A DNA stretch of 64,000 bases from Archivesica marissinica (lineage: Eukaryota; Mollusca; Bivalvia; Venerida; Vesicomyidae), in NCBI GenBank assembly GCA_014843695.1, contig CM026391.1, positions 21,570,626 through 21,634,625 of the forward strand, given 5' to 3'. A program made the position numbers and the translations under genes. This document shows positions 46,001 to 52,000 of this stretch, piece after piece; positions within the stretch are counted from its first letter, which is position 1; the number at the start of each line of letters is the position of its first letter. Under the pieces are notes generated by a model that was not told where the DNA came from, ran no database searches, and was given only the letters and a program-made list of their open reading frames with translations.

Positions 46001-49000
46001 GTTGGAGTCGCCATATGACCAAAGCTGTTGTGCGACTTTAAACCCAAATAATCATATCACATAATCACAGTACGTTCTTGCAAGTTCAATCAAGAATGAA
46101 ATTACATGTCCCATTCATGTTCACTAAATGTAGCAAGCTTGCTTCTCCCATTGAACTATCCGAATGAATACATCATGTTCCTCCATCTTCTATCCTTTTG
46201 CCTATCTTCTGAGTCAATCTTAATTTCAACTTACTAATTTAATTACTATGTGTATTTCTATCACCTTAATACTCTCATTATATTATTGAGATTATAGTTT
46301 ACAGTTCATGGTTAATATAATTTTATACTTATCTTTATCGAATTGCAATTAATAGTTCAGATACGATTAAAACTCTGTCATACTGTAATTACAATATGCA
46401 TCTAATTATAGGAGAAGATCTCTATAAGCTATAGCTTTCGGTTCTAATCCTTTTTCATACATGTAAATATTTGTGTAAATTGTACATTTGTATATGTTGT
46501 ATCATTGTTTGAAATAAACTATGTTTAAACTAAGCCTATAAGATGAGCTCACATAAGACGACCCCCCTCCTTTGATCCGGAAATCTGAGGGTTTTGGCAT
46601 ATAAGACTGGTTGATCAAATGGACACCAGACACAAGTTGAAGAAATGTTCAGTGTCGGGATGTTTTCTTTTCTAAAACATTATTATGGATACCATTTTTT
46701 TAGCACTCGATTATAAGACGAGAAGCCACATTGGGACATAATCTAGTTGTAAAAAACTTGTCTTATTGGCGAGTATGGACTGTATTGTATACATTTTTTG
46801 TTTATTTATGTGAGTATTATTCATCATATTTTAGTGGATTAACCCTTTCAACACCACAAACCTCTATTTATAGGCTTACAAAAAGTGTAGATCCAGATGA
46901 GCCGGCTCGTGACGAGCCGTCTCATCAGGATCAACACTTTTTGCAAGTAGTATTACTAATTTTAGACAAAATTACCCATCTTGATAAATGAACTGGTCCG
47001 AATGTAATTTTCTTATTCATTTATTGGTCTAAGAATATCATGGACCAGTCCATGTCAGTTACTTGGTGTTGAAAGGGTTAACAGATATTGTTTTCTCCAC
47101 GTAGGGAAGAGCTGCAGATCTGAAGTATATCGAGTCGGCAGCCAGAATGATAGCTGAGGTGTCGACACACTCAACGATTGTCGTGGAGAAAAGCACAGTA
47201 CCCGTGAAGGCAGCAGAGAGTATCAGCAATATACTCAGAGCCAATCAAAGACCTGGGGTCAAATATGAGGTAAGAGAGAGCCAATCAAAGACCTGGGGTC
47301 AAATATGAGGTAAGAGAGAGCCAATCAAAGACCTGGGGTCAAATATGAGGTAAGAGAGAGCCAATCAAAGACATGGGGTCAAATATGAGGTAAGAGAGAG
47401 CCAATCAAAGACCTGGGGTCAAATATGAGATAAGAGAGAGAGAGCCAATCAAAGGCCTGGGGTCAAATATGAGGAGCCAATCAAAGACCTGGAGTCAAAT
47501 ATGAGGTAAGAGAGAGCCAATCAAAGACATTGAGTCAAATATCATGTAAGAGACAGCCAATGAAAGACCTGGGATCAAATATGAGGTAAGAGAGAGCCAA
47601 TCAAAGACCTGGGGTCAAATATGAGGTAAGAGAGCCAATCAAAGACCTGGGATCAAATATGAGGTGGGAGAGCCAATCAAAGACCTGGGGTCAAATATGA
47701 GGTAAGAGACAGCCAATCAAAGACCTGGGGTCAAATATGAGGTAAGAGAGAGCCAATCAAAGACCTGGGGTCAAATATGAGGTAAGAGACAGCCAATCAA
47801 AGACCTGGGGTCAAATATGAGGTAAGCGACAGCCAATCAAAGACCTGGGGTCAAATATGAGGTAAGAGAGAGCCAATCAAAGGCCTGGGGTCAAATATGA
47901 GGTAAGAGACAGCCAATCAAAGACCTGGGGTCAAATATGAGGTAAGAGACAGCCAATCAAAGACCTGGTGTCAAATATGAGGTAAGAGAGAGCCAATCAA
48001 AGACATGGGGTCAAATATGAGGTAAGAGAGAGCCAATCAAAGACCTGGGGTCAAATATGAGGTAAGAGAGGCCAATGAAAGACCTGGGGTCAAATATGAG
48101 GTAAGAGAGAGCCAATGAAAGACCTGGGGTCAAATATGAGGTAAGAGACAGTCAATCAAAGACCTGGGGTCAAATATGAGGTAAGAGAGAGCCAATCAAA
48201 GACATGGGGTCAAATATGAGGTAAGAGAGAGCCAATGAAAGACCTGGGGTCAAATATGAGGTAAGAGAGAGCCAATCAAAGACCTAGGGTCAAATATGAG
48301 GTAAGAGACAGCCAATCAAAGACCTGGGGTCAAATATGAGGTAAGAGAGAGCCAATGAAAGACCTGGGGTCAAATATGAGGTAAGAGAGAGCCAATCAAA
48401 GACCTGTGGTCAAATATGAGGTAAGAGAGAGCCAATCAAAGACCTGGGGTCAAATATGAGGTAAGAGAGAGCCAATCAAAGACCTGGGGTCAAATATGAG
48501 GTAAGAGAGAGCCAATCAAAGACCTGGGGTCAAATATGAGGTAAGAGAGAGCCAATCAAAGACCTGGGGTCAAATATGAGGTAAGAGACAGCCAATCAAA
48601 GACCTGGGGTCAAATATGAGGTAAGAGAGAGCCAATCAAAGACCTGGGGTCAAATATGAGGTAAGAGAGAGCCAATCAAAGACCTGGGGTCAAATATGAG
48701 GTAAGAGAGAGCCAATCAAAGACCTAGGGTCAAATATGAGGTAAGAGACAGCCAATCAAAGACCTGGGGTCAAATATGAAGTAAGAGAGAGCCAATCAAA
48801 GACCTGGGGTCAAATATGAGGTAAGAGAGAGCCAATCAAAGACCTGGGGTCAAATATGAGGTAAGAGAGAGCCAATCAAAGACCTGGGGTCAACTATGAG
48901 GTAAGAGAGAGCCAATCAAAGACCTGGGGTCAAATATGAGGTAAGAGAGAGCCAATGAAAGACCTGGGGTCAAATATGAGGTAAGAGAGAGCCAATCAAA

Positions 49001-52000
49001 GACCTGGGGTCAAATATGAGGTAAGAGAGAGCCAATCAAAGACCTGGGGTCAAATATGAGGTAAGAGAGAGCCAATCAAAGACCTGGGGTCAAATATGAG
49101 GTAAGAGAGAGCCAATCAAAGACCTGGGTCAAATATGAGGTAAGAGAGAGCCAATCAAAGACCTGGGGTTAAATATCAGGTAAGAGACAGCCAATCAAAG
49201 ACCTGGGGTTAAATATCAGGTAAGAGACAGCCAATCAAAGACCTGGGGTTAAATATCAGGTAAGAGAAAGCCAATCAAAGACCTGGGGTTAAATATCAGG
49301 TAAGAGACAGCCAATCAAAGACCTGGGGTTAAATATCATGTAAGAGACAGCCAATCAAAGACATGGGGTCAAATATGAGGTAAGAGAGCCAATCAAAGAC
49401 CTGGGGTCAAATATGAGGGAGAGCCAATCAAAGACCTGGGGTCAAATATGAGGTAAGAGAGCCAATCAAAGACCTGGGGTCAAATATGAGGTAAGAGAGA
49501 GCCAATCAAAGACCTGGGGTTAAATATCAGGTAAGAGACAGCCAATCAAAGACCTGGGGTCAAATATGAGGGAGAGCCAATCAAAGACCTGGGGTCAAAT
49601 ATGAGGGATAGCCAATCAAAGACCTGGGTCAAATATGAGGTAAGAGAGCCAATCAAAGACCTGGGGTCAAATATGAGGTAAGAGAGAGCCAATCAAAGAC
49701 CTGGGGTTAAATATGAGGTAAGAGACAGCCAATTAAAGACCTGGGGCCAAATATGAGGTAAGAGAAAGCCAATCAAAGACCTGGGGTTAAATATCAGGTA
49801 AGAGACAGCCAATCAAAGACCTAGGGTCAAATATGAGGTAAGAGAGAGCCAATCAAAGACCTGGGGTCAAATATGAGGTAAGAGAGAGCCAATCAAAGAC
49901 CTGGGGCCAAATATGAGGTAAGAGAGAGCCAATGAAAGACCTGGGGTCAAATATGAGGTAAGAGAGAGCCAATCAAAGACCTGGGGTCAAATATATTGTA
50001 AAATAGTCAATCGCAAAGATATAGTCATAAAGTCGGGTAAGGGGCAACCATTCATAACTCTAGAGATTAATGTCACGAAAAAGGGAACCATTGAAAAATA
50101 TTTTTTATGTCTGGTTGGGAGCCCTTGCTATCTGCTACTCTTGGGTCGTTGATGTCTGGTTTGGGAGCTCTTGGTATCTGCTACTCTTGGGTTGTTGATG
50201 TCTGGTTGGGAGCCCTTGGTATCTGCTACTCTTGGGTTGTTGATTTCTGGTTGGGAGCTCTTGCTATCTGCTACCCTTGTGTTGGCGATGTCTGGTTGGG
50301 AGCCCCTTGCTGTCTGCTACTCTTAGGTCGTTGATGTCTGGATGTGGAGCCCTTGCTATCTGCTACTCTTGGGTTAGCGATGTCTGGTTGGGAGCCCTTG
50401 CTATCTGCAACTCTTGGGTTGTTGATGTCTGGATGGGAGCCCTTGCTATCTGCTACTCTTGGGTTGGCGATGTCTGGTTAGGAGCCCTTACTATCTGCTA
50501 CCCTTGTGTTGTTGATGTCTGGATGGGAGCCCTTGCTATCTGCTACTCTTGGGTTAGCGATGTCTGGTTGGGAGCTCTTGCTATCTGCTACTCTTGGGTT
50601 GGCGATGTCTGGTTGGGAGCCCTTGCTATCTGCTACCATTGTGTTGTTGATGTCTGGATGGGATCCCTTGCTATCTGCTACTCTTGGGTTGTTGATGTCT
50701 GGTTGGGAGCCCTTGCTATCTGCTACTCTTGGGTTGGCGATGTCTGGATGGGAGCCCTTGCTATCTGTTACTCTTGGGTTAGCGATGTATGGTTGGGAGC
50801 CCTTGCTATCTGCTACTCTTGGGTTGGCGATGTCTGGATGGGAGCCCTTGCTATCTGTTACTCTTGGGTTAGCGATGTATGGTTGGGAGCCCTTGCTATC
50901 TGCTACTCTTGGGTTGGCGATGTCTGGTTGGGAGCCCTTGCTATCTGCTACCATTGTGTTGTTGATGTCTGGATGGGAGAAGCCCTTGCTATCTGCTACT
51001 CTTGGGTTGTTGATGTCTGGTTGGGAGCCCTTGCTATCTGCTACTCTTGGGTTGGCGATGTCTGGATGGGAGCCCTTGCTATCTGCTACTCTTGGGTTGG
51101 CGATGTCTTTGGTAAGTACAGCACAACAATCAATCTGTTTTTGCAGCAGCCTCTGCTTCATTATTTGTTTTTTTGTGTTATATTTTTATTATTGATCATT
51201 TCATTAACAGGTGCTGTCTAATCCTGAGTTCTTGGCAGAAGGCACTGCTGTCAAAGATCTGTGTAAGCCTGACCGAGTTTTGATTGGTGGAGAACAGAAT
51301 AAGGAGGGCCTAAAAGCCATATCTAGACTAGCGTGGGTATATGAGCACTGGGTTCCGAAGAATAATGTCATCACAATGAATACTTGGTCATCAGAACTCT
51401 CCAAACTGGTATTGTAGAACTTGTGTGTTTTTGTCATCAGTAGCAACCAATTGTCCTAACTCTTTGCACACTAACAGGTGAAAATAACAGTCAAATTGTT
51501 TCAAAGAGTTTTCAGATACAAATAAGAAAACGTGGAAGTCGTGATAGCGCAGTGGTAGCACATTCGCTTCAGGTGCAAAAGGCCCAGAGTTTGAGCGCCG
51601 CTGGAGCTGTTACGATTGTGTCCTTAGGCAAGGCATTTAAATTCCACATGCCTCCTCTCTCTCTTGTGGCGATGGATTCCATCAGGAATGAGGTCTCGAG
51701 AGTGATTAATATAAGTTGTAAGAAATTTGTTTCGCAATCAAGCTAAAATAAATTTGTATAAACTAAATATAAAAAACACAGTAATGAATTATTTGAACTA
51801 TATATAGCAGTTATTTTGCCCAACATACAAAGAGTCATGGTTCCCTCTGTCTGAATTTTTGACTGTGTCACTTCTGTCGCCAATTGAAAAAAAAATGGAG
51901 CCAATTTGAAAACCTTGGAGTCAACTAAGAGCCATATAGTTCACAGATATATATATTAAGTTGATAAAACATGTTGGAAGTCATGATAGCGTTCGCTTCA

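What the first reader, a model, noticed from the sequence alone, without database searches (positions are those of the whole stretch)
47239..49995. About 68 tandem copies of a working-looking splice donor grown from UGDH exon 3
Each 40-bp unit contains the last 31 bases of exon 3 plus nine intron bases, so the intron opens with a ladder of GAG-GTAAGAG donors. Use of any but the first adds 40n bases and hits a TGA within the first added unit. The spliceosome must pick the first of dozens of near-identical donors, or most transcripts would be lost to decay. The array could set UGDH level through its copy number.
Basis: partly seen in the sequence, partly recalled or inferred. Interest (0 to 1): 0.93.

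Follow-up and report, generated by a model that had tools for sequence, protein, structure and literature searches.

The report
Seventy-copy splice-donor ladder in UGDH
In the UGDH gene of what is likely a bivalve mollusc, the end of one exon together with its splice signal is repeated about 70 times at the start of the following intron; splicing is predicted to use the first copy, since use of any later intact copy would add an early stop, which would make the locus a natural test of how cells choose among near-identical splice sites.

Summary
At 47237-49994 a 40-bp unit, 33 bases of the end of UGDH coding exon 3 plus 7 intron bases, is repeated 70 times. Under a strict pattern 64 of 70 units keep a GT donor. 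Of the 63 after the first, 58 are predicted to pair with U1 at least as well as the real donor, and all 63 put a stop inside the first added unit, so only the first gives an open joint to exon 4.

"Most transcripts would be lost" does not follow. Exon 3 is 165 nt between introns of 1,279 and 3,941 nt; published minigenes with two identical donors in such a setting used the upstream one exclusively. I take the array to be a tolerated minisatellite born at a splice junction, with the first donor likely dominant and perhaps a small leak to decay. No RNA or second individual could be examined.

Exon 6 seeded a 27-bp array and the exon 5 acceptor has a 71-bp duplication. Tandem arrays fill 48% of the window, and their overlap with exons is not beyond chance (P = 0.16). 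Closest precedent: the human IFI6 donor minisatellite.

Outside arrays intron 3 has only about 220 bp, so copy number could switch which donor wins.

The parts
47105..47269 (+). UGDH coding exon 3 (165 nt); its last 33 bases, 47237-47269, are the exon part of repeat unit 1
   Evidence: tblastn to Mercenaria (P0001) and Dreissena (P0047) UGDH, 87.5% identity over the exon in each; exon borders
47237..49994 (+). 40-bp tandem array, 70 units, each 33 exon bases + 7 intron bases with GAG|GTAAGAG; 64 of 70 keep a strict donor pattern
47270..47276 (+). first donor GTAAGAG, the one predicted to be used
   Evidence: exon 3 ending here joins exon 4 without a stop as ...GVKYE|VLSNPEF, matching homologues; the 63 later strict donors do not
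49151..49310 (+). units 49-52 (with units 58 and 65, starting at 49502 and 49769): subfamily with CAG|GTAAGA, predicted stronger U1 pairing (-11.0 vs -9.6 kcal/mol), encoding the Gln common in homologues
50107..51108 (+). second, unrelated 45-bp tandem array (22 copies) in the same intron; best donor-like match in its unit only 5 of 9
51211..51408 (+). UGDH coding exon 4, acceptor ...TTTCATTAACAG|GTGCTG
52447..52580 (+). 71-bp tandem duplication (63-bp match, 96.8%) across the intron 4/exon 5 acceptor; the upstream copy reads GCAC in place of GCAG
53937..54116 (+). 27-bp array copied from the inside of exon 6 (LNLVYLCE), starting 8 bp after the exon 6 donor; recurs at 56622-56879, 59407-59664 and 62190-63685
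   Evidence: 77 blastn matches of exon 6 in four clusters

Best explanation
A 40-bp stretch across the exon 3-intron 3 border of a UGDH gene is repeated 70 times as a minisatellite that carries a splice donor in most units, and splicing most likely still uses the first donor because the long intron probably makes the short 165-nt exon the recognised unit. The founding duplication was probably slippage or unequal exchange between the AGAG at each end of the segment (inferred). The array then grew, probably by local turnover (neighbouring units are more alike than random pairs: shown). U1 would bind many donors, but pairing across the exon with the acceptor at 47104 would favour the nearest donor (predicted from a published rule, not tested here). 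Occasional use of a later donor would put a stop inside the first added unit (shown by translation) and would probably send that transcript to nonsense-mediated decay. On this reading the array is tolerated rather than selected for, with at most a small leak.
For: Exon 3 fits UGDH of other molluscs, and of the 64 strict donors only donor 1 gives an uninterrupted reading into exon 4. Exon 3 is 165 nt, intron 2 is 1,279 nt and intron 3 is 3,941 nt; only 3 of the 64 donors give an exon of 250 nt or less, and none gives an intron of 250 nt or less. PMC9225289 reports an upstream preference among near-equal donors flanked by long introns, and exclusive upstream use in all five minigenes with identical strong donors. 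Neighbouring units are more alike than random pairs: mean edit distance 2.43 against 2.94, reached by none of 2,000 permutations. Tandem arrays cover 48% of the non-N window, and 3 of 11 array seeds in the gene derive from exon sequence against 1.4 expected, P = 0.16, so a junction-born array needs no special cause. A single contrast in the same gene: the spare upstream acceptor copy before exon 5 lacks its AG, while 65 of 70 units here keep GT, as if spare downstream donors cost little (inference).
Against: No RNA was seen. In PMC9225289, before filtering for equal strength, most events in all four intron classes preferred the downstream donor, the stronger donor won in 86% of events, and with both donors weakened the larger-exon minigenes mainly skipped the exon. 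Six units here have a stronger predicted donor. Donor 1 is not especially open in predicted RNA structure: 51 of the other 63 donors are more open. The genome-wide rule comes from human data; its transfer to molluscs is assumed. If all 64 donors competed equally, donor 1 would get only 1.6%, and it needs a 567-fold advantage over each rival for 90%.
Confidence: 0.62

Rival explanations
1. Dosage ladder: later donors compete for the spliceosome, each use gives a transcript for decay, and copy number sets the productive share of UGDH mRNA.
For: 58 of 63 later donors are predicted to pair with U1 at least as well as donor 1, six of them better; all 63 give an early stop. 65 of 70 units keep GT.
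Against: The cross-exon proximity rule predicts little use of later donors (PMC9225289). No significant conservation of the donor core beyond other columns (one variant type in +1..+5, p = 0.16). No expression data.
Confidence: 0.14
2. U1 landing strip: the downstream donors recruit U1 without being cut, which strengthens recognition of exon 3 or protects the long intron from premature polyadenylation.
For: Modified U1 particles directed to sites downstream of a donor promote inclusion of defective exons, and U1 is said to protect transcripts from cryptic polyadenylation (PMC4289686, passages). Donor-like nine-mers are enriched on the + strand of array units in this window: 6 of 26 against 1.14 expected, and 0 of 26 on the - strand.
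Against: The enrichment is post hoc, from one window and 26 units I merged by hand; at a looser threshold both strands are raised. In PMC4289686 the U1s were engineered to bind intronic sequence other than donors, and its authors saw no change in polyadenylation site use. Donor 1 is already a fair donor (7 of 9).
Confidence: 0.12
3. Assembly artefact: the array is much shorter in the animal and was inflated by the assembler.
For: The window holds two runs of exactly 1,000 N (2535-3534 and 26535-27534), so the assembly has gaps; reads could not be examined.
Against: The gaps are not in or beside the array. Units differ by many interspersed substitutions and length changes and end in a diverged unit, which a simple assembly loop would not make. 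Exact copy number remains uncertain.
Confidence: 0.05

Closest known systems
[quoted passage not shown] 1995; title seen in reference lists; paper not held)
   Same: A minisatellite that supplies a series of donor sites; a citing paper says two downstream repeat units are used as splice donors, giving three mRNA species (passage of PMC4526556).
   Different: Recalled, from no call: the IFI6 unit is about 12 bp in about 26 copies, so alternative donors keep the frame. Here the unit is 40 bp, there are 70 copies, and all 63 later strict donors give a stop, so no full-length coding isoforms are expected. Use of more than one donor is untested here.
[quoted passage not shown] PMC4974935, passages)
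   Same: Tandem duplication of exonic sequence that carries a GT donor; that paper also mentions multiple tandem copies of a 24-bp AGGT-containing exonic segment in fission yeasts.
   Different: There the duplication makes a new intron with both GT and AG from duplicated exon sequence. Here it lengthens an intron whose own acceptor lies outside both arrays.
Competing identical donors in minigenes (PMC9225289; abstract, passages, sections 5, 6 and 8)
   Same: The same choice between equal donors after one acceptor, with long flanking introns.
   Different: Two designed donors per minigene in transfected cells, against about 64 natural ones here.
MIR137 VNTR and alternative splicing (PMC6692358, listing and start of abstract only)
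   Same: A tandem repeat tied by its authors to alternative splicing and gene output.
   Different: From what I saw, nothing indicates that its units are repeated splice donors copied from an exon.

Membership tests
UDP-glucose 6-dehydrogenase (UGDH) | NAD-binding and central domains of the UDPG/MGDP dehydrogenase family | tested here: met
   PF03721 E 2.1e-62 and PF00984 E 1.2e-18, both above cutoff, for exons 1-5 joined; solved UGDH structures E 4e-121; Mercenaria UGDH 87% identical over all 269 residues
UDP-glucose 6-dehydrogenase (UGDH) | C-terminal UDP-binding domain | not testable with these tools
   no exon after exon 6 was found in the window (the output was cut); the genome search did not complete
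Splice-donor minisatellite (IFI6 type) | tandem array lying across an exon-intron border | tested here: met
   unit 1 is the end of exon 3 plus its donor
Splice-donor minisatellite (IFI6 type) | donor consensus in the repeated unit | tested here: met
   64 of 70 units by strict pattern
Splice-donor minisatellite (IFI6 type) | more than one repeat unit used as donor in transcripts | not testable with these tools
   no RNA data for this organism
Splice-donor minisatellite (IFI6 type) | alternative donors give coding isoforms (frame kept; recalled) | tested here: not met
   63 of 63 later strict donors hit a stop after residue 166; hence not filed as an IFI6-type isoform generator
Alternative splicing coupled to nonsense-mediated decay | alternative product carries an early stop upstream of later exon joints | tested here: met
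   stop within the first added unit, with joints to exons 4, 5 and 6 downstream
Alternative splicing coupled to nonsense-mediated decay | the alternative product is made, and is regulated | not testable with these tools
   no RNA data
Intron gain by tandem duplication | the new intron takes both GT and AG from the duplicated segment | tested here: not met
   the acceptor of exon 4 (ending at 51210) lies outside both arrays, and exon 4 with 20 bases either side has no other match in the window

The most novel reading that the evidence does not exclude
The array is a length switch for donor choice that works opposite to the naive dosage idea. Outside the arrays intron 3 is only about 220 bp, at the size where splicing passes from intron-defined to exon-defined. 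With few units the last donor would win and transcripts would be lost; once the arrays stretched the intron to 3.9 kb the first donor wins. More copies therefore rescue UGDH, long alleles are favoured, and the repeat has become needed for the gene it invaded.
Probability: 0.12. Interest if true: 0.85.

Novelty: new variant of a known kind. Interest (0 to 1): 0.56.

Why it matters
Which of many equal splice donors is chosen has, in the work I saw, been studied two sites at a time. This locus offers about 64 near-identical donors in a row in a conserved gene, with a built-in read-out: only the first gives an open reading into exon 4. Natural copy-number variants, if they exist, would test the exon- and intron-definition rules directly. 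It also shows how minisatellites in a repeat-rich stretch of genome can copy coding exon ends and splice signals: three exons of this one gene have tandem copies in neighbouring introns, and array copies may have exchanged sequence with the coding exon.

Tried and rejected
Chance or trivial repeat: rejected; 70 units, TRF score 4731. Special targeting of exons by arrays: not supported; 3 of 11 seeds derive from an exon against 1.4 expected (P = 0.16), and 2 contain a junction against 0.61 expected (P = 0.12); the observed counts were entered by hand. Selection keeping or killing the donors: no significant signal (p = 0.16 for variant types, 0.10 for substitutions; column counts copied by hand into). 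The first donor being the most open in RNA structure: not so; 51 of 63 others are more open, although exon 3 with its first five units (47105-47429) folds more stably than 100 shuffles, z = -2.6. Units nearest the exon being most exon-like: no trend, Spearman 0.10, p = 0.42 over units 2-69. The 27-bp exon 6 array as a second donor ladder: I first noted it as such and rejected it. It copies the inside of exon 6, and the true donor CAG|GTAAAC lies upstream at 53929; its GTGAGT sites pair less well with U1 (-5.5 and -6.6 for two forms against -8.3 kcal/mol).

Literature: searches listed no report of a comparable donor ladder other than the IFI6 trail; I saw titles and starts of abstracts of the papers listed (for, 20 of 151 papers). 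One search returned nothing, probably because of its wording. One search was left unused.
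Full report
WHAT IS THERE. The stretch 47237-49994 (+ strand) is a 40-bp tandem array of 69.8 copies, which I split into 70 units: 57 are exactly 40 bp and 21 are identical to the unit holding the exon end, counting that unit itself. Unit 1 is the last 33 bases of a coding exon plus the first 7 intron bases.

THE GENE. Translating the window and comparing it with homologues gives six coding exons of UDP-glucose 6-dehydrogenase on the + strand: 39855-40013, 45688-45825, 47105-47269, 51211-51408, 52538-52685, and an exon ending at 53928. Numbering is by coding exon found here. 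Exons 1-5 joined match Pfam PF03721 (E 2.1e-62) and PF00984 (E 1.2e-18) and solved UGDH structures (E 4e-121). The best of the 120 proteins listed (of 8,000 scored) is from the clam Mercenaria mercenaria, 87% identical; Dreissena polymorpha is 83% over 91% of the query. So the organism is likely a bivalve; its name was not established.

DONORS AND READING FRAME. With the strict pattern ATATNNN|GT, 64 of 70 units keep a donor; 52 of these, donor 1 included, read GAG|GTAAGA and 6 read CAG|GTAAGA. Unit 42 misses the pattern by one upstream base but by eye has an intact donor. Predicted pairing with the U1 5' end (typed from recall) is -9.6 kcal/mol for donor 1; 58 of the 63 later donors are as good or better, and six (units 49-52, 58, 65) are better at -11.0. 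For comparison, the other five UGDH donors score -5.0 to -9.6. In all 63 simulated products that use a later strict donor the reading stops after 166 residues, inside the first added unit, whatever the frame of the whole extension (all).

WHICH DONOR WINS. No RNA was available, so this part is prediction. Exon 3 is 165 nt, intron 2 is 1,279 nt and intron 3 is 3,941 nt; only three of the 64 donors give an exon of 250 nt or less and none gives an intron of 250 nt or less. PMC9225289 (abstract, passages and sections 5, 6 and 8) reports that, among near-equal donors in human genes, long flanking introns favour the upstream donor, and that five of five minigenes with two identical strong donors used the upstream one exclusively. 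Against this, in the same paper most events of all classes favoured the downstream donor before strength was equalised, the stronger donor won in 86% of events, and when both donors were weakened the larger-exon constructs mainly skipped the exon. If all 64 donors here were equal, the first would take 1.6%; it needs a 567-fold advantage over each rival for 90%. Predicted openness of the RNA does not favour donor 1: 51 of 63 later donors are more open.

HOW IT GREW. Neighbouring units are more alike than random pairs (edit distance 2.43 against 2.94; none of 2,000 permutations as low), so the array probably turns over locally. There is no gradient of likeness to the exon. The exon ends in Glu (GAG). 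At that place 107 of the 120 listed homologues have Gln, 8 Glu, 3 Asp and 2 Asn, and the named molluscs Mercenaria, Dreissena and Saccostrea all have Gln. Six units carry CAG, the Gln codon, all within one subfamily that also has a linked C-to-T change. Either these units are fossils of an older exon end, and exon and array have since exchanged sequence, or one unit mutated back by chance and spread. I lean to the first, without proof; Glu does occur in other UGDH proteins.

NOT AN ISOLATED EVENT. The 63 bp at 52447-52509 repeat the exon 5 acceptor region (96.8%) with the AG of the spare upstream acceptor reading AC. The inside of exon 6 seeded a 27-bp array that starts 8 bp after the exon 6 donor and recurs in four clusters. 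That array was then invaded by a hAT-type transposon: inverted ends CAGGGTTGGC/GCCAACCCTG (one base shorter at the left end of the second copy), flanked by the 8-bp repeat TCTACCTG taken from an array unit. It lies in three tandem copies 97.6-98.7% alike, and the two intervening 258-bp array pieces are identical, so transposon and array were probably amplified together. Tandem arrays of period 10 or more cover 48% of the non-N window. Given that density, three exon-derived arrays out of 11 are not surprising (1.4 expected, P = 0.16; junctions: 2 seen, 0.61 expected, P = 0.12).

A LEAD. Among 26 array units that I merged by hand from the TRF list, 6 carry a donor-like nine-mer (at least 7 of 9) on the + strand against 1.14 expected from dinucleotide shuffles; leaving out the exon 3 array, 5 of 25 against 1.09, p = 0.003. 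On the - strand there are 0 of 26 (0.98 expected). At the looser threshold of 6 both strands are raised (11 against 5.7 and 10 against 5.1), and at 8 the + strand has 1 of 26 (0.11 expected, p = 0.10). Left out of the 26 were the arrays at 26434 and 34972, the 11-bp ones inside the transposon, and second units within merged stretches. This is post hoc and from one window.

THE BOLD READING. Outside the two arrays intron 3 has only 214-221 bp. PMC9225289 quotes 200-250 nt as the passage from intron to exon definition and finds downstream donors favoured when the following intron is short. If the array-free part is about the size of the old intron, early short alleles would have favoured the last donor and lost transcripts, and growth would have restored the first donor. 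Nothing here tests it.

VERDICT. A real and striking ladder. By what it is, a minisatellite born at a splice junction, with IFI6 as the closest precedent (seen only through citing papers). Membership in an isoform-making donor minisatellite is not met on reading frame and not testable on use. Most likely it is tolerated because the first donor wins.

Noticed in passing
53937-54116, 56622-56879, 59407-59664, 62190-63685: 27-bp array copied from inside UGDH exon 6 (LNLVYLCE), placed just after that exon's donor; in its frame it translates as repeats of LNLVYLCEF.
   Followed up: yes
54117-62196: Three tandem copies (97.6-98.7% alike) of a hAT-type transposon inserted in the 27-bp array with an 8-bp target repeat TCTACCTG; one copy has a 550-codon open frame (DUF659, hAT dimerisation).
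   Followed up: partly
52447-52580: 71-bp tandem duplication across the exon 5 acceptor; the spare upstream acceptor has AC in place of AG.
   Followed up: yes
49151-49310, 49502-49541, 49769-49808: Array units whose last codon is CAG (Gln), as in 107 of 120 listed homologues, while the exon itself has GAG (Glu): possible fossils of the older exon end and a sign of exchange between exon and array.
   Followed up: partly
10-6336 (GTAAGT in a 50-bp unit), 6869-9123 (CAGGTAGGT in a 32-bp unit), 53557-53720 (TAGGTAAAT), 25773-25996, 33434-34322: Other arrays whose unit carries a donor-like nine-mer (7 or more of 9), in each case on the + strand; more than shuffles give.
   Followed up: partly
whole window: 48% of the non-N window lies in minisatellite-type tandem arrays, several of 20 to 100 copies.
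   Followed up: partly
2535-3534 and 26535-27534: Two gaps of exactly 1,000 N, each beside a tandem array; those arrays may be collapsed or mis-sized.
   Followed up: no
20481-21716, - strand: Single open frame of 412 codons for a rhodopsin-family seven-transmembrane receptor (PF00001, E 4.2e-25).
   Followed up: no
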